From positions 1 to 22,684 of the IMG/VR virus record IMGVR_UViG_3300023180_000430: DNA of 22,684 nt, one strand, 5' to 3'. The notes below the pieces were generated by a model. It made no database searches. It was not told the DNA's origin and was given only the letters and a program-made list of their open reading frames with translations. This document shows positions 2-22,684 of the stretch, piece after piece. Numbering within the stretch: the stretch's first letter is position 1; each line of letters opens with the position of its first letter. Source of the DNA: a virus. The position numbers and the translations under genes were made by a program.

Positions 2-1630
2 CCAAGCCGGATCATGCGCGTGGCTGGCACAGTCTCATGGCCCAACCAAAAGAAACAAGCCAAAGGATACATTCCAGAGCTTGTCACAATGCGTACGCAA
101 TTCAGTACGGATCGTGACCCCGTGCCGTTTGAACGGCTCATGCGAGCATTCCCCAAGAAAGAGCAGCCAGCTAGCAGCATAGACATAGATCTAGGGCAGC
201 AAGCAATGGACAGGCAACTGGCAGTGCAGAACGTGCTAGCCGGTGACGATTGGCACATAAATATGGTCAGGCTTGTCGGCTCATACGTTACAAAAGGTTT
301 ATCAGACGAAGAGATCCACGCCATAACAGATAGCCTCACGCTAGCAGGTTACACGGTAGACGACACAAGAGCAGAGGTTCAACGCGCAATAGATGGGGCC
401 AGAAACAAAGGCTGGACACCGCCACCTGATCCCGTGCAGCAACGCATAGAGCAACAGAACGAGGCGCTGAGTGCCGAAACGCAGGAAACGTGGCCTACCC
501 CCTATAAAACATTTGATGCGCTCACGCTGCCGCGCAGGGAGTGGGTGTACGGATACGATTACATCAAGAAGTATATCAGTGTGACTGCATCGGCAGGTGG
601 CATTGGTAAGACAAGTGCAATCATTGTCGAAGCCATAGCAATATCAACAGGCAAAGACCTGCTCGGCGTACAAGTCAAAGAACAAACAAACGTATGGATC
701 ATCAACCTTGAAGATCCAATATCCGAAATGCAAATGCGAACCATAGCAGCCATGCAGCACTATGGCATAACGCCGGAGGATGTACGCGGCAAGCTCTTCA
801 TGGACGGCGAGGACACCATGCAGATCACACTCGCGGCAGAAAGCAGAGATGGGCTAATCACAAATGATGCGCTGCTTGAACACATCACACGCAAAGTCAA
901 AGAAAACAACATCGGCGTTATTATTATTGACCCGTTTGTGTCAGCGCATCTGGTCAACGAGAATAACAACGGAAGCATCCAAGCAGTCGTTGCCATGCTG
1001 CGCAAGCTGGCCCGTGATACAAACAGCTCAGTCCAGCTCGTCCACCACATCAGAAAAGGCAACGGAGACGATGCCACAATCGACAGTGTGCGCGGCGCAG
1101 GAAGCCTAATCGGAGCAGCCAGAGCCGCCAGAGTAATCAACAGAATAACCCCTGACGATGCAATGGCGCTCGGCGTAGACGAACATGACGCGCTCGGCAT
1201 CTTCGCAATGGACGATGGAAAAGCAAACCTCGCACCGCCAAGCGACAAGCGTATATACAGACGTATGCTCTCAGTCGAAATCGCAAACGGCGAGCATATC
1301 GGGGTTGCAATAGAGTTCAAGCTGCCGGACCTGTTTGATGGCGTCACAACACAAAACGCCAGAAACGTGCAAGCAGTCGTGGCAGAAGCAGAAGCCAACC
1401 AAACACCGTTTAAAGTAAACGTGCAAGCCAAGCACTATGTCGGACAAGCAGTCGCAGATGAGTTGAAGCTAGACCTTGAAAAACCCGGCGACAAGGCAAA
1501 GGTCAAATCAATCGTCAAACAATGGATCAAAACCAACATGCTGAAGCAAGCTGAGATGTACGACAAACGGCAAGGCAGAGACGTGCAATGTGTGGTCGTG
1601 GGCGAGATGATTAAGTGGGATGAAGTGTGA
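2..1630 (+). CDS. Primase-helicase (RepA-like ATPase), C-terminal part, 5' end outside window
   Basis: Predicted replicative ATPase that uses ATP hydrolysis to unwind or load at phage DNA. Numbering from the Met at base 14, the P-loop GGIGKT is at about residues 195-200 (Lys199). The Walker B strand VIIID ends in Asp306, and an LVHHIRKG segment with His344/His345 follows, as in RepA/AAA_25 type RecA-fold helicases. The frame is open to the window edge. The residues before and after that Met (PSRIMRVAGTVSWPN) look like the end of an archaeo-eukaryotic primase-polymerase domain (R-x-x-GT-x-x-x-PN). The true start is therefore probably upstream, and the Met at 14 is internal. The last ~100 residues resemble a DNA-binding tail. 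The stop overlaps the next gene by one base, suggesting coupled translation. The ATPase call is strong; the primase fusion is inferred from a short stretch. Confidence 0.85.
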   Translation, partial: PSRIMRVAGTVSWPNQKKQAKGYIPELVTMRTQFSTDRDPVPFERLMRAFPKKEQPASSIDIDLGQQAMDRQLAVQNVLAGDDWHINMVRLVGSYVTKGLSDEEIHAITDSLTLAGYTVDDTRAEVQRAIDGARNKGWTPPPDPVQQRIEQQNEALSAETQETWPTPYKTFDALTLPRREWVYGYDYIKKYISVTASAGGIGKTSAIIVEAIAISTGKDLLGVQVKEQTNVWIINLEDPISEMQMRTIAAMQHYGITPEDVRGKLFMDGEDTMQITLAAESRDGLITNDALLEHITRKVKENNIGVIIIDPFVSAHLVNENNNGSIQAVVAMLRKLARDTNSSVQLVHHIRKGNGDDATIDSVRGAGSLIGAARAARVINRITPDDAMALGVDEHDALGIFAMDDGKANLAPPSDKRIYRRMLSVEIANGEHIGVAIEFKLPDLFDGVTTQNARNVQAVVAEAEANQTPFKVNVQAKHYVGQAVADELKLDLEKPGDKAKVKSIVKQWIKTNMLKQAEMYDKRQGRDVQCVVVGEMIKWDEV

Positions 1631-2436
1631 TGGACGCATACATATTACCAGAAGGAAACGTGTTAATTAGCTTCTCTGGCGGCAGAACGTCAGGCTACAT
1701 GCTGCACCAAATCTTAGAGGCAAACAATGGTCTGCCAGACAGAGCAAAAGTCACATTCGCAAACACTGGCAGAGAAATGCCAGAAACGCTAGACTTTGTG
1801 CAGGAGTGTTCAGACAGATGGAACGTGTCGATTACTTGGTTGGAGTACACAAAGGCAAAGCCAAAGTTCAAAACAGTTAGTCATAACTTAGCAGCTAGAA
1901 ACGGTGAACCGTTTGAGGAATGCATCAACAGCGTTACGAAGAATAGATACTTGCCAAATCAAGCACAGCGTTTCTGCACACAGCAAATGAAGGTTCTAAC
2001 AATCAAACGCTACCTCGTTAGACAAGGTTGGAAGCAATGGACGAATACTGTCGGCATCCGAGCAGACGAAGCGCGAAGAGTTAAGCCGTCAAAAGACAAG
2101 AGATGGATAAACTGGTTCCCGCTGAATGATGCGAAAGTGTCTGTGCAAGACGTAAACAAGTTTTGGAAGGCGCAGAAGTTTGACTTGCGCGTGATGAAAG
2201 GCGGCGGGAATTGTGATGGATGCTTTCTAAAGTCCGAAGCAACACTTGCAGCCATGTGGCGTGAGCAGCCAAGCAGAATGCAATGGTGGGCAGATATGGA
2301 AGCCAAGACAGGCGGTCAGTTTCACAAGAGCAGAAACTATGAAAAACTTGGCAACTTTGTCAGCCGCCAAGGCGATTGGATATTTGATGACGAGGCATTC
2401 TTATGTCAAGCAGACGATGGAGAATGTACTGGCTAA
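1630..2436 (+). CDS. PP-loop ATPase, PAPS reductase family
   Basis: A 268-residue adenine nucleotide alpha-hydrolase of the phosphoadenosine phosphosulfate reductase family. Counted from the ATG at 1630, the PP-loop SGGRTS is at residues 16-21, followed by NTGREMPETL near 60, RFCTQQMK with Cys116, GIRADEARR, and a CDGC pair (Cys195, Cys198). The tail holds Cys259 and Cys266. Classical PAPS reductases use one C-terminal catalytic Cys. The extra cysteines here recall family members that hold a metal or Fe-S cluster, such as DndC-type and tRNA-thiolation enzymes. The substrate cannot be read from sequence: sulfate activation, nucleic acid sulfur modification or another adenylation are all possible. 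An alternative GTG start at 1627 adds one residue; the ATG in a TGATG overlap with the helicase is preferred. Neighbouring replication genes favour a nucleic acid role, but weakly. Confidence 0.85.
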   Translation: MDAYILPEGNVLISFSGGRTSGYMLHQILEANNGLPDRAKVTFANTGREMPETLDFVQECSDRWNVSITWLEYTKAKPKFKTVSHNLAARNGEPFEECINSVTKNRYLPNQAQRFCTQQMKVLTIKRYLVRQGWKQWTNTVGIRADEARRVKPSKDKRWINWFPLNDAKVSVQDVNKFWKAQKFDLRVMKGGGNCDGCFLKSEATLAAMWREQPSRMQWWADMEAKTGGQFHKSRNYEKLGNFVSRQGDWIFDDEAFLCQADDGECTG

Positions 2437-10183: not shown

Positions 10184-10789
10184 ATGACAAGTAACGTCGA
10201 TATTGCCAACTATGCGCTTAACATGCTGGGTGCTTCAAACATTTCTGCGTTTGATGAAAACAGCAAGGCGGCAAGGCTTGTCAATCAAAGATACGATGGG
10301 GTTAGAGATGCGGTGTTTCGCTCTCATCCTTGGAACAGTTTAATACGCAGAGCGGCATTGGCTCAAGAAGTGGATGCTCCTGCATTCGGATATTCCAAGC
10401 AATATGCGCTGCCTACAGATCCGTATTGCTTGCGTGTGTTGGAATTTAACAATGGATCTTTGGCATATCCTCAAGACAATATGACCAGCAACACGGGCGA
10501 TAGTGTTTTTGTTATTGAAGGGCGCAAGTTGCTGACTGATGAAGGCACGGCAAAAATTAAGTACATAGCAAGAATTACTGACCCACAGCAATATGATGCA
10601 GGGTTGATTGAAGCTTTGGCGTCCCGCCTTGCTGTTGAGCTTTGTTACGCAATTACGGGATCGAATAGCTTGCTGGGTACTGTGACTGCATTGCATGAGG
10701 CTAAACTAAAAGAGGCAAGGTATGTTGATGCAACTGAGGGCGCTCCGCAACGCATAGAGGCGAGTGACTTTATTGAAGCGAGGCTCTAA
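10184..10789 (+). CDS. Tail tubular protein A (T7 gp11-like adaptor)
   Basis: Forms the adaptor ring under the portal that closes the head and receives the nozzle. It is 201 residues, against 196 in T7 gp11. The N terminus VDIANYALNMLGASNISAFD with SKAARLVNQRYDGVRDAVFR SHPWN is the family signature. The central YSKQYALPTDPYCLRVLEFN and the C-terminal DAGLIEALASRLAVELCYAI TGS also fit. The start ATG 10184 has GGAG at 10173-10176. The stop overlaps the next gene (TAATG), so it is coupled to the nozzle protein, its direct partner in the tail. Confidence 0.92.
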   Translation: MTSNVDIANYALNMLGASNISAFDENSKAARLVNQRYDGVRDAVFRSHPWNSLIRRAALAQEVDAPAFGYSKQYALPTDPYCLRVLEFNNGSLAYPQDNMTSNTGDSVFVIEGRKLLTDEGTAKIKYIARITDPQQYDAGLIEALASRLAVELCYAITGSNSLLGTVTALHEAKLKEARYVDATEGAPQRIEASDFIEARL

Positions 10790-12792
10790 TGGCACGATCC
10801 GCTCCAGCCTTTAGTTCTTTTACTGCGGGTGAAATATCGCCACGCCTTGAAGGTCGCATAAACATTGAGAAGTATCGTGAGGGTTTGTCTGATTTGACGA
10901 ACATGGTTGTTATGCCTCATGGGGGTGTAACGCGCAGACCGGGTACAGAGTTTCTTGGCGCTACGGCAGATAGTTCTGTAAAGTCTCGTTTAATTCCGTT
11001 TCAGTTTAAAACCTCAGACACATACATCTTAGAGTTTGGCAATCAAACGATGCGGGTGTATCGCAATGATTTGCAGGTTCTTAATGCTTCTGCAAAAACA
11101 ATTACTGCCATTACTAAAGCAAACCCCGGCATTGTAACAAGTGCAAGTCATGGGTTTGGCAACGGCGATGAAGTTTATGTTGACAGTATTGGCGGCATGA
11201 CTGAGCTAAATGGCAGAAATTACCTTGTTGCAAATGCCTCAACTAACACGTTTACGCTGCAAGATTTGTTTGGCAATAATATAGATACGACAAGTTTTAC
11301 AACATATACGTCAGGCGGCACGGCAACAGAGATTTATGAAATTGCCACCCCATACGCTGAAGCTGATTTGTTTGACCTGCGGTTCGCTCAAAGTGCTGAT
11401 ACCATGTATATCGTGCATCCGAGCTACGATGTGCGAACCTTGACGCGCACTGATCACAATGCTTGGACTTTTGCCACACCTACGTTTTCGGGTTCTCCTT
11501 CCCCCGGATTGTCGGGGTCTGATAATCGTCCAAGTGTTGTGACATTCTTTGAGCAGCGTCTTGTGTTTGCTAATAGCAACAATAATCCACAAACTGTTTG
11601 GTTTAGTAAGAACGGCGATTATACAAACTTCACTGTCGGCACGGCTGATGATGACGCATTGATCTATACGATTGCATCTAATCAAGTGAATGCGGTGCGC
11701 TTTCTATCTGCAACGCGGGTTTTGACCATCGGAACAAGTGGCGGTGAGTATGTGCTAACGGCGACGAATGACGGTCCTGTGACGCCTACAACAACGCTTA
11801 TTCGCAAATATAGTAATTATGGATCTTCAACTGTGGAGCCTGTGCAGGTTGCTGATGTAACTTTGTTTGCCCAGCGCGGTGGCAGAAAGGTCAGAGAGTT
11901 TCGATATGCTGGCGAAGTGAATACTGCGGGGTATCAGGCTCCCGATATGACCATACTGGCAGAGCATATCACTGAGGGCGGCATAAATCAGTTTGCATAC
12001 CAGCAAGAGCCGGATAGCATTATCTGGGCTGTACGAGCAGATGGAACGCTCTTAGGGCTGACATATCGCAGAGAAGAAGAAGTTGTTGCATGGCACAAGC
12101 ATGTTATTGGCGGTGCATTCGGCGGCGGTCAGGCAGTGGTTGAAAGCATTGCTACTTTGCCTACAGACACGGGCGAAGACGAATTGTTTATGGTTGTAAA
12201 GCGCACGATCCAAAGCGTAACGCGCAGATATGTTGAAAAAATGAAGTTGTTTGATTTTGGGAATGATACAACTACAGCGTTTTTTGTAGATAGCGGGTTG
12301 TCTTATAGTGGCGGCGCAACATCTTCTCTTAGCGGATTATATCACTTGGAAGGTGAAAGCGTAGCGATTTTGGCAAATGGCGCAAGCCATCCAGATAAGA
12401 CCGTAAGCTCTGCGGCAGTGGCTTTAGACTTTTCGTCTACGAGTGCGGTGGCGGGTTATAACTTTGTAAGTAACTTGCAAACGCTGCGCATTGAAAGCGG
12501 ATCTGTGGATGGCACAAGTCAGGGCAAACCCAAGCGTATCCATGGGATTACTTTACGACTGTATGAAACTGTTGGAATTGAGGTTGGCAATGACAGTGGT
12601 GAGATAGATCGCATACCATTTAGGGATAGCTCAATGGCTATGGACGAGGCTGTGCCTTTGTTTACTGGCGACAAAAACATTGAGTTTGAGGGCGGTTTTG
12701 ATGATGATGACCGGATTTATGTAAGACAGAACCAGCCTTTGCCGATTTCTGTACTTGCGTTCTTCCCAAGAATGAACACGTTTGACATATGA
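10789..12792 (+). CDS. Tail tubular protein B (T7 gp12-like nozzle)
   Basis: Builds the hexameric tail nozzle that attaches to the adaptor and holds the fibres. It is 667 residues, shorter than T7 gp12 (794). Diagnostic N-terminal segment: FTAGEISPRLEGRINIEKYR, then LSDLTNMVVMPHGGVTRRPG TEFL. The next part is beta-rich with a platform-like insertion (AITKANPGIVTSASHGFGNG DEVYV). NRPSVVTFFEQRLVFANSNN NPQTVWFSKNGDYTNF and FAQRGGRKVREF are also conserved in these proteins. The C terminus (YVRQNQPLPISVLAFFPRMN) is typical for the family. It overlaps the next gene by ATGA. Confidence 0.93.
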   Translation: MARSAPAFSSFTAGEISPRLEGRINIEKYREGLSDLTNMVVMPHGGVTRRPGTEFLGATADSSVKSRLIPFQFKTSDTYILEFGNQTMRVYRNDLQVLNASAKTITAITKANPGIVTSASHGFGNGDEVYVDSIGGMTELNGRNYLVANASTNTFTLQDLFGNNIDTTSFTTYTSGGTATEIYEIATPYAEADLFDLRFAQSADTMYIVHPSYDVRTLTRTDHNAWTFATPTFSGSPSPGLSGSDNRPSVVTFFEQRLVFANSNNNPQTVWFSKNGDYTNFTVGTADDDALIYTIASNQVNAVRFLSATRVLTIGTSGGEYVLTATNDGPVTPTTTLIRKYSNYGSSTVEPVQVADVTLFAQRGGRKVREFRYAGEVNTAGYQAPDMTILAEHITEGGINQFAYQQEPDSIIWAVRADGTLLGLTYRREEEVVAWHKHVIGGAFGGGQAVVESIATLPTDTGEDELFMVVKRTIQSVTRRYVEKMKLFDFGNDTTTAFFVDSGLSYSGGATSSLSGLYHLEGESVAILANGASHPDKTVSSAAVALDFSSTSAVAGYNFVSNLQTLRIESGSVDGTSQGKPKRIHGITLRLYETVGIEVGNDSGEIDRIPFRDSSMAMDEAVPLFTGDKNIEFEGGFDDDDRIYVRQNQPLPISVLAFFPRMNTFDI

Positions 12793-13244
12793 TTGAGTAC
12801 TCAAAAGAAAGCTTCATGGAAGCAAAAGAAGAGCTAGAGCCAATGTTTGTTGATCATTACAATGAGATTGCTCTTAGTAAGGACAAGATTGAGCTTGGCC
12901 CAGATTGGGATATGTACCAAGCATTAGAGGATGCAAACTTGCTGCATTTCTATACCATGCGAGAGAGCGGATTTTTGGCTGGCTACTTTGCCATGATTGT
13001 AATGCGTGACTTACACTATAAAGACCATATCTTTGCCCTTAATGATCTGATATATATAAATCCTAAGAGCCGGAAAGGGTTTAACGCTTGGCGGCTAATT
13101 AAGTTTGCCGAGCGCGATTTAAAAGATGTTGGTGTTTCTGTGATGCACATAAATGTAAAAACGCACAAACCGTTTGATAGGCTTCTAGTACGTTTAGGTT
13201 TTGAGCATTCCGAAAACATTTTCCGAAAGTACATAGGGGGCTGA
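12789..13244 (+). CDS. GNAT-like protein in the internal virion protein A slot
   Basis: A 151-residue protein with a GNAT acyltransferase layout: helices at the N terminus (SFMEAKEELEPMFVDHYNEI), then strands FYTMRESGFLAGYFAMIVM and HIFALNDLIYINPKSRKGFN A, whose RKGFNA turn sits where the acetyl-CoA pyrophosphate loop should be. A helix and INVKTHKPFDRLLVRLGFEH follow, a common GNAT ending. The loop is a poor match to R/Q-x-x-G-x-G/A, so cofactor binding is uncertain. It lies between the nozzle gene and the gp14-like gene, where T7 has gp13 (138 residues). It may be a virion-assembly protein that reuses the fold. There is an ATGA overlap with the nozzle gene. Confidence 0.72.
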   Translation: MIEYSKESFMEAKEELEPMFVDHYNEIALSKDKIELGPDWDMYQALEDANLLHFYTMRESGFLAGYFAMIVMRDLHYKDHIFALNDLIYINPKSRKGFNAWRLIKFAERDLKDVGVSVMHINVKTHKPFDRLLVRLGFEHSENIFRKYIGG

Positions 13245-13245
13245 T

Positions 13246-13779
13246 ATGGGTGTTCAAGCTGCATTAGCCGCTGTTCAAATCGGAACAACATTATACCAAG
13301 GCGTACAAGCAAAAAAATCTAGTGACAAGGCAGCACGGGCTGCGAAACGCGCTGGTGAATTTAACGCAAAGATTATTGAGCGCGATATTGATTTATTTGA
13401 AAAACAGCGCAAAATTGTAAATGCGCAATTTGCCGTTGATCAAAAACGGTCAAGAGACATCTTTGAAAGAGATGTGCAGGGAGCGGTTCGATCTGGATTT
13501 GCATTTGCTGGTGTGGACATGAGTATGGGAACGCCAATAAATGTTTTGCGTCAAAATGCGCGAGAGTTTGATTATGAGCAAAAAGTTGCTGCATTTAATA
13601 ATGAAGTTGCGAATATGCAAATAAATGATGCTCAAGAAGAAGCTAGGTTAAATGCAGAGCTTTCTCGCATGGAAGGTGGTATGGCGGCTGCTTCAGCAAG
13701 AGCGAAGGGAACTGCTTCGCTTATTTCAAGCGTTGGAAGAGCGGCTGGGACTGCTTATGAAACTGGGTTTTTTGCGTAA
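13246..13779 (+). CDS. Internal virion protein B (T7 gp14-like)
   Basis: Ejected inner-core protein expected to form the pore in the host outer membrane. It is 177 residues, against 196 in T7 gp14. The N terminus VQAALAAVQIGTTLYQGVQA KK is a short hydrophobic/amphipathic helix. A long coiled-coil stretch follows (SDKAARAAKRAGEFNAKIIE, KQRKIVNAQFAVDQKRSRDI). The block GAVRSGFAFAGVDMSMGTPI NVLRQNAREFDYE is the recognisable family segment (gv-x-x-x-x-GS/TP). Another helix ends the protein in an Ala/Gly-rich tail. The ribosome site is AGGGGG before ATG 13246, with a one-base gap after the previous stop. Confidence 0.85.
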   Translation: MGVQAALAAVQIGTTLYQGVQAKKSSDKAARAAKRAGEFNAKIIERDIDLFEKQRKIVNAQFAVDQKRSRDIFERDVQGAVRSGFAFAGVDMSMGTPINVLRQNAREFDYEQKVAAFNNEVANMQINDAQEEARLNAELSRMEGGMAAASARAKGTASLISSVGRAAGTAYETGFFA

Positions 13780-13794
13780 AATGGGAATAATTTA

Positions 13795-15678
13795 ATGAGA
13801 ATACCAGTTTACACAACTAGGATTAGACCAGCCCAAGAAGCGCCGGGGCGCTCTATTCGTGCGCGTCAAAGCGTTCAGCAAGCCGTTGCATTTGAAGAAG
13901 CGAAGGCTGCTCCTGCTCTTGCATTTGCCGAGGCTGTGGGTGAGTACGCAAAAACAAGATATAAGATTGAAGTTGAAACCAAACGTAACGAGGCAATTGC
14001 CGGAGCCAAAGAAGAGCTTATGGATTTGCAGCGAAAGCTGGAAAGTTCACCGCGCATTTTTGATGTGTTCAAAGAAGATGGCACAGGCGTTTGGGATACA
14101 TCTGTTGCATCAATAAAAGATCGTTTACGTGATACTATTGGCGGCAATGTCTACGCATTGCAAGATTTTGATAGCGCATTTAATCAGGCTGAAATGACGT
14201 TGAGGTTTAGCTTGAAAGACGCAATTGAAAGAAAAGTTGAAGCTAGACGTAAGGCAGCATTACAACAAAGAAACGATCAGATTGTTGCCACATACAGCAA
14301 TCCTTATGGAAACTTCACGGGCGAAGATCTTGTATTTGCTGAAGCAGAACTTAATTCAATGTGGGAGAACGCAGTTAAAAATGGCGGCGTTAATCCTGAC
14401 TTTGTGTCTGCTCTTGGCGCAAAGAATACATTAACTATAGCTGAGAACGTAACTATGGGATATGCAGGACGTGATCCCAATTTAGTGTTTGGTTTAGCCG
14501 AAACTTTAAATATACTTGATAAACTTCAAACTGGCGAGATTGATGAAGAGACTGCACAATTAGAATTAGAGCAGATTGATCTTCCTAATTCTTCTTGGGC
14601 AATTACTACTTTAAGTTCTATCCCTCGCGCTAAAGCTAATGAAATTCTTTCTAACACTTTAACGGATGCAAATAAGTTTGCAAAAGCAAGGCGCGAAGAA
14701 GAAGCGGCAAGGGTAGCCGAAGTAAAAGTTTCCGGCGATAAACTAAAACTTTTCGCTTTTTCAGATCGTATGGATAGTAGCGAAAGAATACCAATTAATG
14801 AAATATTTGACGAATATTTTCATGTGCCGGGAATTGCTCAAAGCTTTTTACCGGGATTAAGTGTAGGTGTTTATGAAGAGCTAAAAGCTCAAGGTAAGTT
14901 TAAAACTATTACTGATGCGGATGGCAATGAGATTGAAACAATTTCTCCTAAAGATGCCAGAGTAATTATTGCCGAAATATTGCAAAAGCAGGGAATACTT
15001 ACACTCACTGAGCAAGATCGGTTGGAAAATATTATTGAAGCAGAAGAAGAAGGGCGCAGCTATGCGCCCACCGTTAGCAATGAATTGGTAAAATTAAATC
15101 TTACTCAATTGATGGCAAACAATCAACTGACAGAAAAAGATGTTCAACAAGAGATATCTCAACTAACCGCAGAAGATTATTCTAGTTTTATGACAACCGC
15201 TAGAAACATAGCTGGCGCAAAACAAACTGAGTTAGATCAAGAATTAGCAGATGAGCTTGCCATTCTAAAGAACGAGCTTTTTGTTGTTGATCGTGATGTT
15301 CTCAATCCAGAAGATATTATTGCCAATCAGACTTTTGCATCAATAAATGCGGCGCTATCCAAAGAAGTGAACAGGGGCGACATTAAAACAGTTGTAGAAT
15401 TAAGAAGAAGATCTGATGAATTATTAAATCAAGAGCGTCAAAAATATAAAATCAGATTGCGTCAGCCATATTTAAACATGTTGAAAGTAAACGTGAAGGG
15501 GCCATTTTATGGTGCAATTGATATTTCAAGCAACACTCCTTTAGACGATTTAACCGCACGTTGGGATGCCATAAAAGCAGATCCTAAAAATGCACCTAAT
15601 TTAATTTTTTTAGAACAAGATTATTTAAAGATTTACGCAGATATTGAACGATATGTTAGAAGAGGAATATTCCAATGA
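13795..15678 (+). CDS. Internal virion protein C candidate (T7 gp15 position)
   Basis: A 627-residue, highly helical, charged protein. I recognise it by position rather than motif: it follows the gp14-like gene as T7 gp15 (747 residues) does. The N-terminal ~35 residues (RIPVYTTRIRPAQEAPGRSI RAR) resemble the start of ejection proteins. A long helical region (ALAFAEAVGEYAKTRYKIEV ETKRNEAIAGAKEELMDLQR) and repeated Glu/Lys/Leu-rich helices then continue to the end. The expected role is part of the tube across the periplasm during DNA entry. No enzymatic motif is visible, including no lytic transglycosylase signature. The ribosome site is weak (GGGA at 13782-13785, 9 bases before the ATG). Third positions become more A/T-rich from here onward. 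It overlaps the next gene by ATGA. Confidence 0.7.
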   Translation: MRIPVYTTRIRPAQEAPGRSIRARQSVQQAVAFEEAKAAPALAFAEAVGEYAKTRYKIEVETKRNEAIAGAKEELMDLQRKLESSPRIFDVFKEDGTGVWDTSVASIKDRLRDTIGGNVYALQDFDSAFNQAEMTLRFSLKDAIERKVEARRKAALQQRNDQIVATYSNPYGNFTGEDLVFAEAELNSMWENAVKNGGVNPDFVSALGAKNTLTIAENVTMGYAGRDPNLVFGLAETLNILDKLQTGEIDEETAQLELEQIDLPNSSWAITTLSSIPRAKANEILSNTLTDANKFAKARREEEAARVAEVKVSGDKLKLFAFSDRMDSSERIPINEIFDEYFHVPGIAQSFLPGLSVGVYEELKAQGKFKTITDADGNEIETISPKDARVIIAEILQKQGILTLTEQDRLENIIEAEEEGRSYAPTVSNELVKLNLTQLMANNQLTEKDVQQEISQLTAEDYSSFMTTARNIAGAKQTELDQELADELAILKNELFVVDRDVLNPEDIIANQTFASINAALSKEVNRGDIKTVVELRRRSDELLNQERQKYKIRLRQPYLNMLKVNVKGPFYGAIDISSNTPLDDLTARWDAIKADPKNAPNLIFLEQDYLKIYADIERYVRRGIFQ

Positions 15679-18140
15679 CAAATTTAAATTCAGAAAATGC
15701 TGATGTTGAATTTGAACGCTACATAGATGCGTATAATCTTTCGCAAGCAAGCCTTCCAGTTGATAACCTGCTAAACAAGCAGAAGCGGTTTAATCCCGTA
15801 AGCGGACGCAATGACGTTGTGTTTCGCATGGGAAACGGCGGTTATATAAAAATTGGTGAAGAAGATCTGCCTTCACCGCTTCAACCTGTTGTTGAAGAAA
15901 CACCTGCGCAACCTCCACAGATGATGACTGAGGCGATGCAGCAACCAGAGGTGGCAACTGAGTTGCCAGTTAGTGATATTGAAATACAAGGTGCGCAGCA
16001 ATTTAATGAAGAGCAAAGGCGCATAGGAAACATTCCCACGCTTGAGGATTTTGATGCGGCAGGATACTCAAAAGAAATTGTTGAGGCGGCTGGTTTAGAG
16101 CAACCCGAAACGATTGAACCTCTTACGCAAGAGCAAATTCAGCAAAGGCTTGAGACGGGCGGCATTGAGATTGCTACAACTGATCCAACTATTCGCGAAA
16201 ACGCCGCAAACAAAATGAGCCGTTATTTAACAGACATAGCTTTGCAAGATTTACGCGAAGAATTACAAGCACAAGGCGCAAGCGAGCGTACTATTCAAGA
16301 GACATTGAGAACCAGAGAAAACGAATTGTTTGGTGAGGCTGAGGTTATTACCAATGCAATCTGGGGCCATAAGTCCGGCATTGGCGTAGCTGATTTTGCT
16401 ACGGCTGGCATCTTGGACATACAAGAAGGTTATCGCTTGTATGAGCAGAGCTTATATACAGGCAACAACACAGACAGAGTATTTGGCTTGCTGCTTATGG
16501 CGGCTGGCGTTGGCGGTTTGGGTGGAGTTGCCAAGGCTGTTAAACGTAAGTTGCCAGCAATTAGAGAAAGGCTGAACCAACCCGGACCAATGCCAACAAC
16601 AAGTATGTTTGGCGCGGGGGAGATTGATCGTGGGTTGGCGGCGGCGGGTAGGTTTTTAGATGCACCAAGGGCAAGAAGCGTTGATGAATTTGCAGAGCTT
16701 GCTGCTAGTGGTAAATTGCGCCAAGCGCGTACAACAGAGCAAGACATTTCTGATATTACAGAAAAGAAAATGCCTGCTACAGTAATAAACTTGCAGGGAG
16801 CAGATGACGAGTTGTCAATTGCTTATGAAAGTGGAGAAATTACTGATCAGCTTACGAACGCAGGGCTGTTTGTTGATGACGATCAAATGGGAACCATTTA
16901 TGTTGGCACCACACAAGAAAACCTAGACGCGATAAAATTGGCTGAAAACCCAGCCGAAATTGGCAAGCTGTCAGGATATTCAGACGCTGATATAGCTGCA
17001 TTTTATTTGAAGCGCAGAGGTGGCGATAAAAAGGCAGCGTTTCAAGAATACAGGTCTGACTTAGCGGATGCGCGAGCTAAAGAGCGGGATCAAATCGGCG
17101 CAAGGGAGATTGACGATATACGAGTAGACAGAGTTGAAGCGCCAACAGAAGAAAAGCCGGGTATTATTGCATTCCACGGATCAGGCGCTGACTTTGATGA
17201 GTTTAAGCTAGACAAAATTAATACTGGCGAAGGTGCGCAAGCATTTGGTTATGGTTTATATTTTACAGACAGTAAGGACATTGCGCTGTTTTACAAATCG
17301 GCTGTAAGGCAAGCTAAAGATTTAAGAGAAGGTTATGACGTTACTTATAAGGGTCAACCTTTTAAAAACTTAGGAGACACGCCAGAAGCTGAGGTGCAAG
17401 GGGAAGAATATTTTGCAGTTAATGCAATCATTGATAGCCTCAATAAAGTTACAACAATAAGAACAAGAGATCTTCCACAGCCTGAGTTGTTGCAATTAGC
17501 TAAAGAAAAAGCAATTGAACAAGTAGAGCAGCAAATAAAATCATTTGGTGATGATATTTCAGAAATACGATTAAATCACCTAAATGAAAGCTTGGATACA
17601 TTAAAATCTGTTGATGTAAATGATGTGTCATTTTCTAAAGGTAAAACGTATCAAGTAAAATTGGATGTAACGCCAGACGAATTACTTGATTATGACAAGC
17701 CATTTAACGAGCAGTCTCTTTTTGCGCAGCAAGCAATTCTTAAAACTTTAGATGAAATGACGTTAGATGACGCAGTTAATATGGGTGTTGATCTTTATGG
17801 ACCGCCTTACAATGGAAAGATTAATAAAAATACAGAACAGATGGCAATTCAAGAGGCGCAAAATCTTATGTTAAAAGATTTTTCGGTAGTGCGCTTTTTA
17901 AATGATTGGTCTGTTTTGCGTGGAGCCAAAAACTCTGGCGAGGAATTGCTTGAGAAAAATGGCATCAAGGGAATTAAATATAAAGCAAACAGAGGTCCGG
18001 GGGCAAGAAATGTCCCAGAGACAGGATCAGACAACTATGTTATTTTTGACGATAAGCTGATACAAATTATGAAAAAGTACGGTATAGTTGGACCAATTGC
18101 TGTAACAGCAATGAAGCCTAAAGAGCAAGAAGAGATATAG
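15675..18140 (+). CDS. Ejection-type virion protein with ADP-ribosyltransferase-like domain
   Basis: An 821-residue protein with AGAGGA at 15661-15666 before its ATG. Residues 1-260 are acidic, Gln/Glu/Pro-rich and probably extended. A Gly/Ala-rich hydrophobic stretch (VFGLLLMAAGVGGLGGVAKA) starts near residue 269. From about residue 498 to the end there is a domain opening with IIAFHGSGADFDEFKLDKIN (His501), then GAQAFGYGLYFTDS (523-533, Tyr529). It closes with GIKGIKYK and NYVIFDDKLIQIMKKYGI near 787. This order, HG-S/T..., GyGlYFtds, ...NYV-x-FDd-x-x-I, is that of ART-PolyVal domains, ADP-ribosyltransferase-like domains in large injected phage and plasmid proteins. The third catalytic residue (usually Glu) cannot be placed confidently. 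It would be packaged, injected and possibly modify a host target. It lies between gp15-like and giant ejection genes. Confidence 0.78.
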   Translation: MTNLNSENADVEFERYIDAYNLSQASLPVDNLLNKQKRFNPVSGRNDVVFRMGNGGYIKIGEEDLPSPLQPVVEETPAQPPQMMTEAMQQPEVATELPVSDIEIQGAQQFNEEQRRIGNIPTLEDFDAAGYSKEIVEAAGLEQPETIEPLTQEQIQQRLETGGIEIATTDPTIRENAANKMSRYLTDIALQDLREELQAQGASERTIQETLRTRENELFGEAEVITNAIWGHKSGIGVADFATAGILDIQEGYRLYEQSLYTGNNTDRVFGLLLMAAGVGGLGGVAKAVKRKLPAIRERLNQPGPMPTTSMFGAGEIDRGLAAAGRFLDAPRARSVDEFAELAASGKLRQARTTEQDISDITEKKMPATVINLQGADDELSIAYESGEITDQLTNAGLFVDDDQMGTIYVGTTQENLDAIKLAENPAEIGKLSGYSDADIAAFYLKRRGGDKKAAFQEYRSDLADARAKERDQIGAREIDDIRVDRVEAPTEEKPGIIAFHGSGADFDEFKLDKINTGEGAQAFGYGLYFTDSKDIALFYKSAVRQAKDLREGYDVTYKGQPFKNLGDTPEAEVQGEEYFAVNAIIDSLNKVTTIRTRDLPQPELLQLAKEKAIEQVEQQIKSFGDDISEIRLNHLNESLDTLKSVDVNDVSFSKGKTYQVKLDVTPDELLDYDKPFNEQSLFAQQAILKTLDEMTLDDAVNMGVDLYGPPYNGKINKNTEQMAIQEAQNLMLKDFSVVRFLNDWSVLRGAKNSGEELLEKNGIKGIKYKANRGPGARNVPETGSDNYVIFDDKLIQIMKKYGIVGPIAVTAMKPKEQEEI

Positions 18141-18141
18141 C

Positions 18142-21100
18142 ATGGCAATAGATCCAGCCGAATTAGCAGAAGAGCAAGAGCAGCGTCAACGCATCAACGT
18201 AGCTGGCGCACCTACTGAGTTTGCCAAGGGGCCAGAGCGCGAAGGTGTTGAGGTTGCAGGGCTGGGGCCTTTGCTTGATTTGTTTAGGTCTATGCCCACT
18301 ACTACAAAGCCAACGGTAAAAGTTGACCCAGAGGCTGCTATACCACCAACAGGTCGTGCAGAGGTAATACCGCAAAGACCGCCTACGCTTGCAGAGGAAC
18401 GCGCTGCTAAAGAGCTTACGCCGGATTATAGATACCAAGAAGTGCAACGTGCAGTTGCTCCTTCTGTGCTTCAACCTCCCGCGTTACAAGAATTTGAAAG
18501 ACGTGGCTTTCAAGCCTTTCCTAGCGATGATGAAACAATCTTACAAACTGCGCAACAGATTGCAAAGGAAGAAGCAGAGAATGCAAAAAAGACAACTGAA
18601 ACTGTAATAAATCAGGCTCAAAAAGTTGTTACCAAAGAAAGCGCAGGTAGACCTATCAATGTAAGTGATTTGCTTGCGGCTGATAGAACGCAAAGTGTCC
18701 TTGAGCGTCTTGAAGAAATTAAAAGGGATGCTTCAGCGGTAGCCAAAACGAACACATTTAACACTGATCGTATATTAACGGGCGAGGATTTGCATCTTGC
18801 CTTGGAAGTTATTTCAGAGGATTTTGCTGATGCCATTGAGTTGCAGCGCCGAGGCGTCATTTCAAATGAGCAGACAGTTGATGAGGCTGCGCAAATCCTT
18901 GCAACAAATGAGCTTGGATTTACTGAAGAGCTTTTAAAAAGAAAAATTGGAGATGGTTCGTTTAACGCTGCAAAAACACTGGCAGCGCGGCAGTTGCTTG
19001 TTATTAACATGGAGCGTCTTTTAAATATCAAAGACAAAATTATGGCAGATGTTGCCGCTGGAAACAAACCTGATCCAAATGACTTGCTAGAGTTTCGTCG
19101 CAAATTAACAATGCAAGCGGCGATACAAATACAAACTATAGGCAATCGAACAGAAGCTGGACGAACATTGCAAATTTTTAACGTGCCAGTTTCGGGCGAA
19201 GAGGAAGCTTTACAAGGTGCTGTTAATGCCAAGCGTCTTTTAAATGAAGCTGGCGGTGAAGAAGTTGCTATGGAACTGGTCAACCGCTTGTCTGAAATTT
19301 CCAAAAGCGAAGATGCAATTGCTGGCATAAATAGATTTTCTTTGAAGGCATATGCGGCAAAAGGCAAAGAATTAATACACCAAGCATATATGGCTGGTTT
19401 GCTTTCCAATCCAGCAACGCAAGTTAAAAATATCTTAGGCACTGCTTCATACATGTTATATCAAATCCCCTCCGAGTTAATGGCTGGGGCGTATGGGTCT
19501 GCCATTCGCAGGACGCAAGCATTGCGTGGCGTTGATATTGATCCTGAGCAAGTGTATATGCGCGATGCGTTGTTGCGCATGAAAGGATGGTCTGATAGTT
19601 TTAAAGATGCGTGGCAAGCTGGGGCTTTGGCATTCCGCACTGAACTGCCTAGCGGCTCGCGCAATCGGTATGACTTGGAAGTGTACAATCCAGTTGGCGA
19701 AGCAGAAGAAACCTTTTTCTCAAAAAGCTTGTCATATGCTGGTAAAGGTATCCGCTTACCATTCCGGCTTCTTCTTGGAGCAGATGAGTTTTTCAAGGTT
19801 ATGTCGCAGCGTGGCGAGCTATATACAGCGGTAAGCCGCAGATATGGCGATTTAATTCTTCAAGGTAAAAGCGATGAAGAAGCATTGGCTGAGGCTGGAA
19901 TGCTCTTGCTTGATCCAAAAGCTGTTAGCGAAGTTCTGGAAGAAAAAGGATTGTATGACACAATGCAATCTGATCTAGGTGCGCTGGGCAAACTAACAGG
20001 TCCAATACAGAATAACTTTTTTGGTAGATTTATTTTGCCGTTTGCAACTGCTCCGGCAAACTCCATGATGCGGGTAGCGGAGCATACTCCTTTGGGGTAT
20101 TACAAAACTTTTGGTCCAAAAGGATTTGGCGGGGGAGCTACGCCAAAAGAAAGACAGATTGCTTTTGGCAGAGCTACTCTTGGATCTGCAACAATGTTAA
20201 TGTTTTCTCAATATGCTGCGGAAGGGCGGATTACTGGATCACGCCCACGCGACAAAGCTGCGCGGGAAGCATTGCCACCTAACTGGCAACCATATAGTTT
20301 TGTCGTAAGAGACGAAGGATTTCCAGAAGGGATGCCATTATATGATATGTATGGCAATCCAAATGGGCCATTAAAGTATATCCCGTATTCGGGGTTTGAG
20401 CCAGTTGGCGCTATAATTGGTTTGTCTGCGGATTATGCGCAACGCGCCTCTGAGCTTCCTCCCAGCGAAAGCACTTTAAAATTATTAGCAGATCATGCTG
20501 GTCTTGGCACATCGGTAGTTGCTGATTATATGTCCGAGCTTCCCATGCTTAAAGGGATTTCAGATGTTGCTGATGCTTTAAGCGGTAATGGTTTAGAAAA
20601 CTTACTGCGCAGCTATCCGCAAAGCGCAAGTGCGGCGGGTGTTCCAAATATCTTTAGTGGGCTGCAAAGGGCGGCATATGATCTAAACGATCCTAGACTT
20701 GTCAAACCACGCAAAGATGTCACGTATTACACAGAAGAAGATGTACTGCGCACTGATGAAAACGGAAACTTTCTTCTTGGCTCTACACCTTCCGGCAAGC
20801 CAAGGTATGATTTGGTCGGCGTAGCAAAAGACACAACAGCGGAAAAATTATTGTCTGCCGTTCATTCATACTTTGATCAAGACACTTTCTTCCCCGGCAA
20901 AAGCCAATATGATCTAAATGCAATTGTGTATGACACAATGGGCAATCCATTGACTTCATCCGAATTGAGTTTGGCAAACCGTCCAGTTCGCGCAATTATC
21001 AACCGTGTTTTGGGATTGCGCGTTGAGCCGGGGCGTGAGCCAACTGATGTAGAAAAGACTTTGGTTGCAATTTATGGCGAAACAGGCAAATGGCCTTTAA

Positions 21101-21495
21101 AGAATAAAGAAAGTCTTGAAGGGGTTGGTTTGAGTTTTGGCGCTCAATCAGATTGGACTTACTTGGCTAAAAGCCCAGAAGCGGAAACAAGAGTGTCTGT
21201 TCCATCTATGGGGTATTTAAGGTTGACGTTCCAAGAAGCTTTAGAGCTTATGACAACAGGATCTGCAAATATTAATGGTGCTGTAATTACTGATGTTTAT
21301 ACTCGCTTCAATACCAAAAGCCGTAAGGAGCAAGCTAGCCTTATATCGCAATTGAATGATACTTTCTATGATGCTACAATAGAGCAGCTTTTTGAAATGA
21401 AAGATGAAGATGGCAATTTAAGGTATGAAAACCTGCGCTCTGCTTATCAGGATGTGCAGACAATCAAAGAGCGAGAGGCTGCGTTAAACAGATGA
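18142..21495 (+). CDS. Large internal virion protein (T7 gp16 position; polyvalent-protein-like)
   Basis: A 1117-residue protein in the slot of T7 gp16 (1318), the last ejection protein before the fibre. The N-terminal 130 residues are Pro/Glu-rich and low complexity, followed by long helices. Two segments recall large polyvalent injected phage proteins: AYMAGLLSNPATQVKNILGT at about 415-434, followed by a hydrophobic stretch (ASYMLYQIPSELMAGAYGSA), and NNFFGRFILPFATAPANSMM at 624-643. The latter resembles the F-PF-x-x-TP-x-N motif of that group. The similarity to an LPD38-like region is from memory and unsearched. No N-terminal transglycosylase motif like that of T7 gp16 is seen. The probable role is the inner part of the ejection conduit. 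The ribosome site is weak; it starts one base after the previous stop and overlaps the fibre gene by ATGA. Confidence 0.72.
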   Translation: MAIDPAELAEEQEQRQRINVAGAPTEFAKGPEREGVEVAGLGPLLDLFRSMPTTTKPTVKVDPEAAIPPTGRAEVIPQRPPTLAEERAAKELTPDYRYQEVQRAVAPSVLQPPALQEFERRGFQAFPSDDETILQTAQQIAKEEAENAKKTTETVINQAQKVVTKESAGRPINVSDLLAADRTQSVLERLEEIKRDASAVAKTNTFNTDRILTGEDLHLALEVISEDFADAIELQRRGVISNEQTVDEAAQILATNELGFTEELLKRKIGDGSFNAAKTLAARQLLVINMERLLNIKDKIMADVAAGNKPDPNDLLEFRRKLTMQAAIQIQTIGNRTEAGRTLQIFNVPVSGEEEALQGAVNAKRLLNEAGGEEVAMELVNRLSEISKSEDAIAGINRFSLKAYAAKGKELIHQAYMAGLLSNPATQVKNILGTASYMLYQIPSELMAGAYGSAIRRTQALRGVDIDPEQVYMRDALLRMKGWSDSFKDAWQAGALAFRTELPSGSRNRYDLEVYNPVGEAEETFFSKSLSYAGKGIRLPFRLLLGADEFFKVMSQRGELYTAVSRRYGDLILQGKSDEEALAEAGMLLLDPKAVSEVLEEKGLYDTMQSDLGALGKLTGPIQNNFFGRFILPFATAPANSMMRVAEHTPLGYYKTFGPKGFGGGATPKERQIAFGRATLGSATMLMFSQYAAEGRITGSRPRDKAAREALPPNWQPYSFVVRDEGFPEGMPLYDMYGNPNGPLKYIPYSGFEPVGAIIGLSADYAQRASELPPSESTLKLLADHAGLGTSVVADYMSELPMLKGISDVADALSGNGLENLLRSYPQSASAAGVPNIFSGLQRAAYDLNDPRLVKPRKDVTYYTEEDVLRTDENGNFLLGSTPSGKPRYDLVGVAKDTTAEKLLSAVHSYFDQDTFFPGKSQYDLNAIVYDTMGNPLTSSELSLANRPVRAIINRVLGLRVEPGREPTDVEKTLVAIYGETGKWPLKNKESLEGVGLSFGAQSDWTYLAKSPEAETRVSVPSMGYLRLTFQEALELMTTGSANINGAVITDVYTRFNTKSRKEQASLISQLNDTFYDATIEQLFEMKDEDGNLRYENLRSAYQDVQTIKEREAALNR

Positions 21496-22684
21496 CAGTA
21501 ACCAGTAGTACAAACAAAGTAAGCTTTAACGGAGATAGCTCTACAACTGTCTTTGCGTATAGCTTTAAGATCTTTGATGAAGATGATCTGACAGTCATTT
21601 TGCGGAGCAGCACGGGTACAGAAACCACCCAAACCATTACAACGCATTACACTGTGTCGGGGGTTGGCAGCGCAGGTGGTGGCAATGTAACAATGGTGAC
21701 TGCTCCTGCTACTGGTGAAACTCTAACGATCTTGCGTGAGCAGCCATTGACGCAAGGTTTGGATCTTGTGCCAAACGATCCTTTTCCTGCGGAAAGTATG
21801 GAAGAAGCTTTAGACAAGCTGACGTTTATGGTGCAGACGCACAGCGAGGAGCTTGATCGGGCAATCAAAGCGTCAAAGACAAATACGATTACATCGACAG
21901 AGTTTACTGTATCTGCGGCAGATCGTGCAAATAAAGTGTTTGCTTTTGATGGCAGCGGAGACATTTCTGTTACGCAAGAGATTGGCACATTTCGCGGCAA
22001 TTGGGCTACAGCAACTGCATATCAACCGCGCGACTTAGTTAAAGACACAAGCACTAGTAATGTCTTCATTGTAAATACAGCGCATACATCTAGCGGATCG
22101 GAGCCGCTAACAACAAACGCCAACAGCGCGAAGTATGATTTGATTGTTGACGCTGCATCTGTGTCTACATCTGCATCTGCGGCAGCGGCAAGCGCAACGG
22201 CTGCGGCATCCAGCGCAACGGCTGCGGCGGCGAGCGAAAGCAATGCGGCTACATCTGAAAGCAATGCCGCAACAAGCGCAACAACTGCGTCCACTCAGGC
22301 AACCAATGCGGCAAGCTCTGCCACGGCTGCGGCTGCATCTGAGGGCAATGCCTCAACGTCTGAGACAAATGCTGCTTCATCGGCAACGGCTGCGGCAGCA
22401 AGTGAGACGGCTGCGGCTGCATCTGAAAGCGCTGCCGCAACATCGGAAACAAACGCGGCAACGTCTGCATCTTCTGCATCTACATCTGCCACGACTGCAT
22501 CGACTGCCGCGACAACTGCAACAACTCAAGCGTCTGCGGCGGCAACGTCTGCAACTAACGCTGCAACGTCAGAAACAAATGCGTCTACCAGTGAAACAAA
22601 TGCGGCAACATCGGCAACAAATGCAGCGACTTCTGCATCGGCTGCGGCAGCATCACAGACTGCGGCGGCTGCTTCGGCTGCATC
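21492..22684 (+). CDS. Tail fibre, N-terminal part (3' end outside window)
   Basis: Open for at least 397 codons without a stop. Residues 1-130 match the T7 gp17-type attachment domain (TVTSSTNKVSFNGDSSTTVF AYSFKIFDEDDLTVIL, then ETLTILREQPLTQGLDLVPN DPFPAESMEEALDKLTFMVQ). That domain plugs the fibre trimer onto the tail. A short linker (TNTITSTEFTVSAADRANKV) leads to FRGNWATATAYQPRDLV...FIVNTAHTSSGSEP (about 167-207; Trp171, Tyr177). This looks like a CBM5/12-type carbohydrate-binding module. From residue 221 the protein is Ala/Ser/Thr-rich; from residue 233 there are regular heptads. Fibres are trimers that recognise host surface glycans; the tip that sets host range is outside the window. 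The ATG at 21492 overlaps the previous stop (ATGA). Confidence 0.88.
   Translation, partial: MTVTSSTNKVSFNGDSSTTVFAYSFKIFDEDDLTVILRSSTGTETTQTITTHYTVSGVGSAGGGNVTMVTAPATGETLTILREQPLTQGLDLVPNDPFPAESMEEALDKLTFMVQTHSEELDRAIKASKTNTITSTEFTVSAADRANKVFAFDGSGDISVTQEIGTFRGNWATATAYQPRDLVKDTSTSNVFIVNTAHTSSGSEPLTTNANSAKYDLIVDAASVSTSASAAAASATAAASSATAAAASESNAATSESNAATSATTASTQATNAASSATAAAASEGNASTSETNAASSATAAAASETAAAASESAAATSETNAATSASSASTSATTASTAATTATTQASAAATSATNAATSETNASTSETNAATSATNAATSASAAAASQTAAAASAA
22188..22684 (+). repeat. 21-base (heptad) tandem repeats in the tail fibre
   Basis: At least 23 consecutive degenerate 21-base units encode heptads such as TSETNAA, TSESNAA, SSATAAA and ASETAAA, running to the window edge. 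At the DNA level they share GCAACATCTGAAACAAATGC-like units, so unequal recombination could change shaft length. The repeats are like the Ala/Ser/Thr/Asn heptads of lambda-type side fibres and suit a trimeric coiled coil. Confidence 0.85.

What the first reader, a model, noticed from the sequence alone, without database searches (positions are those of the whole stretch)
15675..18140. ADP-ribosyltransferase-like domain inside a predicted ejected virion protein
The C-terminal ~320 residues carry the HG...GYGLYFTDS...NYVIFDD order of ART-PolyVal domains. Located among internal virion genes, the enzyme would be delivered with the DNA, before any phage gene is expressed, making it a candidate early anti-defence or host-takeover effector. 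T4 Alt gives a precedent for injected ARTs, but the T7-like internal core is not known for it.
Basis: partly seen in the sequence, partly recalled or inferred. Interest (0 to 1): 0.85.

Follow-up and report, generated by a model that had tools for sequence, protein, structure and literature searches.

The report
Swappable enzyme in phage ejection core
A marine short-tailed phage carries, among the proteins it most likely ejects into its host, a protein whose tail end is an ADP-ribosyltransferase-type enzyme, and relatives keep the front half while swapping that enzyme for many others, as if the phage core had a socket for interchangeable weapons.

Summary
ORF 15675-18140 (821 aa) ends in an ART-PolyVal-type ADP-ribosyltransferase domain (aa ~486-817). 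Pfam E is 1e-5, below the curated cut-off, but the same domain recurs in 60 non-redundant relatives with His501 in 58/60, Tyr529 in 60/60 and Asp792 in 59/59. This is the H-Y-D triad that Iyer et al. 2017 describe for ARTs of phage 'polyvalent' proteins. A model of a compact homologue matches phage ART-PolyVal structures; matches to solved ARTs were not significant. The gene lies directly between gp15-like and gp16-like ejection-protein genes, as in 65 of 65 loci where both sides could be read. The first ~310 residues are shared in this position (58 of 75 proteins), while the C-terminus is exchanged among at least 12 classes: ART-PolyVal, a second ART-like family (motif only), GNAT+ART, DUF7178 and unknowns, or nothing. 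Pairs with 84-86% identical N-termini have unrelated C-termini, and one internal cassette is 96% identical to that of a phage with unrelated flanks. Best reading: a core-docking N-domain carrying interchangeable ejected effectors, here an ART. Virion location, ejection, activity and target are inferred. It resembles MuF and polyvalent effectors, on a new carrier in a new genomic position.

The parts
15675..18140 (+). slot protein, 821 aa: constant N-domain, middle cassette, C-terminal ART
15675..16604 (+). constant N-terminal domain (aa 1-310), presumed core-docking domain; shared by 58 of 75 slot proteins
   Evidence: alignment; no Pfam or PHROG match; not a detectable relative of gp14, gp15 or gp16
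16626..17095 (+). exchanged middle cassette (about aa 318-474), function unknown; 96% identical protein in L079 with abrupt DNA edges
17130..18125 (+). ART-PolyVal-type ADP-ribosyltransferase domain (aa 486-817)
17175..17177 (+). codon of His501, predicted NAD-binding His of strand 1
   Evidence: 58 of 60 homologues
17259..17261 (+). codon of Tyr529, predicted NAD-binding Tyr of strand 2
   Evidence: 60 of 60 homologues
18048..18050 (+). codon of Asp792, predicted third residue of the H-Y-D triad
   Evidence: 59 of 59 (the scan pattern included this motif)
13246..13779 (+). gp14-like internal virion protein
   Evidence: PF24072 E=3e-4, phrog_418 E=1e-6
13795..15678 (+). gp15-position protein (627 aa), overlaps the slot gene by 4 nt
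   Evidence: position; gp15-like family directly upstream of the slot in 65 of 65 loci
18142..21495 (+). gp16-like internal virion protein (1117 aa)
   Evidence: phrog_6651 E=2.6e-18; matches 'internal virion protein D' of isolates
12789..13244 (+). acetyltransferase-fold gp13-position protein
   Evidence: phrog_1249 E=8e-9

Best explanation
The gene encodes a fourth, modular protein of a T7/P22-type ejection core. Its constant N-terminal domain holds it in the gp14-gp15-gp16 core or in the head. Its C-terminal ART-PolyVal domain is a cargo enzyme that leaves the head with the core proteins, reaches the host cytoplasm where NAD+ is, and mono-ADP-ribosylates a host macromolecule (most likely a protein) before phage genes are expressed. 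Relatives keep the N-domain and the gene position and exchange the cargo by recombination, as expected if host targets or defences differ. Shown here: homology, conserved catalytic residues, fixed gene position, cargo swapping. Inferred: core docking, ejection, catalysis, target, benefit.
For: ART: Pfam hit; H/Y/D conserved across 60 relatives; compact-homologue model matches phage ART-PolyVal structures, and the non-significant PDB list is led by PARP2 and includes a diphtheria-toxin homologue and a streptococcal NADase. Position: gp15-like gene directly upstream in 65 of 65 readable loci, gp16-like directly downstream. Loci found through the ART alone, without regard to context: 28 of 60 lie directly upstream of gp16, 25 directly upstream of a large terminase, 5 at contig ends, 2 other. 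The ART is always at the extreme C-terminus (median 11 residues after it in 91 proteins). Swapping: N-termini 84-86% identical with unrelated C-termini (L050/L038/L037, L007/L085, L046/L054). On a gp16 tree of 74 loci the 13 states need 36 changes (12 would be the least) and ART alone 10, of which well-supported branches force 9. L042 and L043 are the N-domain alone (307 aa). The same two cargo types (ART, DUF7178-type) sit in one 3100-aa protein of Rhodobacteraceae phage LS06-2018-MD07 directly after the gp14- and gp15-position genes, and separately between portal and coat or scaffold genes in phiGT1 and CRP-738.
Against: No proteomics was available; phiGT1 mass-spectrometry data exist only in a supplement I could not open. 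The N-domain has no detectable relation to gp14, gp15 or gp16 (hhalign probability <1%), so docking is inference. The window's own ART model was poor. Pfam scores stay below the curated cut-off in the members checked. Two homologues have Ser for His. Some relatives lie next to terminase, which is not a virion component.
Confidence: 0.62

Rival explanations
1. The ART is a true enzyme but acts after synthesis in the infected cell (late host modification or exclusion of competing phages), not by ejection; it is a cargo gene parked in the late operon.
For: No virion data; 25 of 60 ART relatives lie next to the terminase, whose products are not packaged; half of 16 near-full-length relatives carry an integrase, so lysogenic uses are possible.
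Against: Strict gp15-slot-gp16 position (65 of 65), a constant N-domain that persists without cargo (L042, L043), and occurrence of the same module in giant core-position proteins and beside portal genes.
Confidence: 0.2
2. Polymorphic toxin in the MuF sense: the ejected C-terminal domain poisons competitors or already infected hosts rather than helping the infecting phage.
For: Same design: constant structural N-domain with swapped C-terminal enzymes, including ARTs, as for MuF toxins (PMC5576092).
Against: No room for an immunity gene: the gap to gp16 is 1 nt here, median 63 and at most 208 nt in 75 loci, whereas 89% of MuF toxin genes are followed by a small ORF (PMC5576092). Eight of 16 near-full-length relatives show no integrase.
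Confidence: 0.1
3. The ART-like domain is catalytically dead and serves as a binding or packing module of the core.
For: His to Ser in L098 and L162; low-confidence model of the NAD pocket.
Against: Triad kept in the window and nearly all relatives across 34-72% identity; replacement by other, partly enzymatic domains such as GNAT.
Confidence: 0.06

Closest known systems
ART-PolyVal (PF18760; Tox-ART-HYD2-related ARTs of polyvalent proteins, PMC5512222)
   Same: H-Y-D residues in the same order; E 1e-3 to 1e-6 for relatives scanned singly; two Bacteroidales giant multidomain proteins share FHGSGADF...NYVIFDE
   Different: Scores under the curated cut-off; long helical insert between the Tyr and Asp motifs; lies in an 821-aa core-position protein with one carrier domain rather than a giant multidomain protein
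T4 Alt
   Same: An ART expected to enter the cell with the DNA
   Different: R-S-E clade (Alt/VIP2) in a myovirus head; Alt is proven in virions and on host RNA polymerase, this one is not
MuF polymorphic toxins (PMC5576092)
   Same: Virion-linked N-domain with exchangeable C-terminal enzymes including ARTs
   Different: Unrelated N-domain, different gene position (gp15-gp16), no immunity gene space
T7 gp14/gp15/gp16 ejectosome (PMC8954989)
   Same: gp14-like and gp16-like neighbours in the same order; domain swapping among ejection proteins is known (lysozyme domain in gp15 or gp16)
   Different: T7-type relatives have gp15 directly followed by gp16 (ProddE, HTVC025P); here an extra cargo gene sits between them; no T7-type RNA polymerase in 16 near-full-length relatives (positive controls)

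Membership tests
ART-PolyVal (PF18760) | Profile score over the curated gathering cut-off (31.2 bits) | tested here: not met
   26.8 bits, E=1e-5; the relatives checked fall below it too
ART-PolyVal (PF18760) | H (strand 1), Y (strand 2), D (strand 5) active site | tested here: met
   H501, Y529, D792; 58/60, 60/60, 59/59; strands at E12-16, E44-47, E185-189 of the compact model
ART-PolyVal (PF18760) | ART fold | tested here: inconclusive
   Compact homologue matches predicted phage ART-PolyVal structures (E to 1e-6); PDB ART hits not significant; window model unusable
ART-PolyVal (PF18760) | NAD+-dependent transferase activity | not testable with these tools
   Needs biochemistry
Polyvalent protein (Iyer 2017) | Several distinct effector domains in one polypeptide | tested here: inconclusive
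   Window protein: one recognised enzyme plus an unassigned middle cassette; relatives L002 and L026 have GNAT+ART
T7/P22-type ejection core protein | Gene within the gp14-gp15-gp16 cluster | tested here: met
T7/P22-type ejection core protein | Presence in virion and ejection | not testable with these tools
   Needs proteomics of an isolate
MuF polymorphic toxin | Downstream immunity ORF | tested here: not met
   1-nt gap to gp16
MuF polymorphic toxin | MuF N-terminal domain | tested here: not met
   No Pfam match in aa 1-310
T4 Alt family | R-S-E active site | tested here: not met
   H-Y-D instead

The most novel reading that the evidence does not exclude
Podoviruses with a gp14/15/16-type core have a dedicated, interchangeable effector position: one constant core-docking domain that delivers at least a dozen alternative C-terminal enzymes (ART-PolyVal, a second ART-like family, GNAT, DUF7178 and several unknown families) into the host at the moment of DNA entry. 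It would be a counterpart, in the ejection core, of MuF and of secretion-system polymorphic effectors.
Probability: 0.55. Interest if true: 0.78.

Novelty: new variant of a known kind. Interest (0 to 1): 0.62.

Why it matters
If right, the internal core of common marine short-tailed phages is a delivery platform with a constant carrier and swappable payloads that act before any phage gene is expressed. That would give a list of unknown domains (DUF7178 and others) a testable role as early anti-defence or host-takeover effectors, and would explain why this core gene varies so fast. The constant N-domain is also a concrete handle for finding new ejected effectors by sequence alone.

Tried and rejected
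Sequence search of solved structures with the ART and with the DUF7178-type profile gave nothing useful. Fold search with the window's own ART model gave only unrelated helical proteins; I used a compact homologue instead. The idea that in vir555 and LS06-2018-MD07 the ART is fused to gp16 was tested and not met: no gp16 match in those giant proteins, only the position fits. The idea that the N-domain is a diverged gp14, gp15 or gp16 was not met. DUF7178-type modules looked like DNA glycosylases by one motif (VDTH/VDVxxxR), but nothing supports it; left as a lead. The genome-contig scan found only two distant relatives, both in Bacteroidales giant proteins. No PF18760 member over the cut-off was found for a profile-profile test.

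Full report
What is there. The window is a 22.7-kb fragment of an uncultivated short-tailed phage (G000 is a virus record). Its portal is about 59% identical to HTVC010P-type pelagiphages. Gene order from 10184: tail tubular A and B, an acetyltransferase-like gp13-position gene, gp14-like, gp15-position, the 821-aa gene of the finding, gp16-like, tail fibre.

The ART. Pfam finds ART-PolyVal at aa 498-565 with E=1e-5, under the curated cut-off. Confidence comes from the family. A scan of IMG/VR with an 11-sequence alignment returned 410 relatives, of which the best 80 were kept. In 60 non-redundant domains His501 is kept in 58, Gly502 and Ser503 in 60, Tyr529 in 60, Asn787 and Asp792 in 59 of 59. 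The NYVIFDD conservation is partly built in, because it was a scan pattern; the His and Tyr motifs were not used. H-Y-D is the active site described for ARTs of polyvalent proteins, which Iyer et al. relate to PARPs and diphtheria/cholix toxins (PMC5512222). Two Bacteroidales giant multidomain proteins carry the same motifs. Structure: the window's domain has long helical inserts and its NAD-pocket strand was predicted at pLDDT <50, so its fold search is uninformative. A 220-aa homologue without the insert (L162, 54% identical to the window domain) modelled at pTM 0.74. It matched 36 predicted viral structures at E<=1e-3, several named ART-PolyVal. Its best PDB matches, not significant, were PARP2, with a diphtheria-toxin homologue and a streptococcal NADase further down.

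The position. A scan with a gp16 alignment gave 80 loci, and for 75 proteins the ORF immediately upstream of gp16 could be read (the window is one of them). In 65 of 65 with a complete 5' side a gp15-like gene lies directly upstream. Loci found through the ART alone, without regard to context, put it directly before gp16 in 28 of 60 cases and between terminase genes in 25 (small and large terminase identified). T7-type isolates with a related gp16 (ProddE, HTVC025P) have no gene between gp15 and gp16. Sixteen near-full-length relatives have no T7-type RNA polymerase, while the search rings in ProddE and HTVC025P. These phages therefore probably rely on host RNA polymerase, which makes an Alt-like role possible but does not show it.

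The swap. An HMM of aa 1-315 matches 58 of 75 slot proteins; the ART model matches only 11. C-termini fall into at least 12 classes: ART-PolyVal; a second ART-like family judged by motif only (L079, L025, L027, L035, L062, L090); L038 (weak ART-PolyVal); DUF7178-type; several large unknown families; GNAT modules beside an ART. L042 and L043 end after the N-domain (307 aa). L050, L038 and L037 share N-termini at 84% with unrelated C-termini; so do L007/L085 (86%) and L046/L054 (85%). On a gp16 tree the 13 states need 36 changes, and ART alone 10 for 10 rows, at least 9 forced by well-supported branches (a quick tree with some long branches, so counts are approximate). The window protein is itself a three-part mosaic. 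Aa ~318-474 are 96% identical to L079, whose N-domain is 25% identical and whose C-terminus is unrelated, with abrupt DNA edges near 16626 and 17095. The ART is 89% identical to L001, whose N-domain is 28% and gp15 29% identical, with DNA similarity starting near 17117.

How it most likely works. The constant N-domain ties the protein to the core; the C-terminal enzyme is the payload. T7-type core proteins are expelled from the head on infection, and gp16 is placed partly in the cytoplasm (PMC8954989). An enzyme travelling with them could use host NAD+ at once. I take modification of a host protein, for host takeover or against a defence, as most likely, following the argument for polyvalent ARTs in PMC5512222. 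Target and benefit are unknown. Frequent exchange of the payload fits an arms race but is not proof.

Known and new. Membership: the ART belongs with ART-PolyVal by residues and relatives but fails the Pfam cut-off, so I call it a divergent branch. Head-packaged ARTs, MuF-ART fusions and virion-linked effectors are established ideas (PMC9503650, PMC5576092, PMC5512222). Podoviruses with ARTs are said to be few (about 3%, PMC9503650). What I did not find described is a dedicated gp15-gp16 position with one carrier domain and many payloads (an open-access library only, so absence is weak evidence). Unlike MuF toxins there is no space for an immunity gene.

Limits. No virion proteomics, no activity data, no isolate of this exact group. 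N-domain docking is inferred from position and constancy alone. Selection of loci by gp16 similarity fixes the downstream neighbour by design.

Noticed in passing
window 16626-17095: A middle cassette shared almost identically with L079 but with no other locus fetched and no Pfam or phage-collection DNA match; its function is unknown and it may be a second effector.
   Followed up: partly
L079:9334-9885, L025, L027, L035, L062, L090: A different C-terminal family (VTIYRAVP...GDFVTLSPTYA...EFGYFPEE) with ART-like motif spacing and no Pfam match; found also in mycobacteriophages and Vibrio phages with genomes near 247 kb as hypothetical proteins.
   Followed up: partly
L036:8513-9790 and relatives; L023 aa 1954-2317: DUF7178-type module, the commonest alternative cargo (16 of 53 proteins hit PF23802); also in Roseobacter phage CRP-738 gp40 between portal and coat genes.
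   Followed up: partly
L162 and L098: ART domains with Ser in place of the catalytic His: natural inactive or altered variants.
   Followed up: no
L001:10126-10174: In the closest relative (89% identical ART) the reading frame is broken between the His and Tyr motifs; assembly error or inactivation, not resolved.
   Followed up: partly
L003-L006, L105-L108, L112 and others: The same ART family sits between small and large terminase genes in another phage group, with about 150-350 aa of unrelated N-terminus.
   Followed up: partly
window 1627-2436: PAPS-reductase-family gene (PF01507 E=1e-8) in the replication-side genes.
   Followed up: no
window 10789-12792: Tail tubular B with a hit to Pfam E1_FCCH (E=1e-11) at aa 112-182; this stretch aligns in separate pieces in several relatives.
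   Followed up: no
window 21492-22684: Tail fibre gene running off the end with long Ala/Ser/Thr-rich repeats (AASETNAATS type).
   Followed up: no
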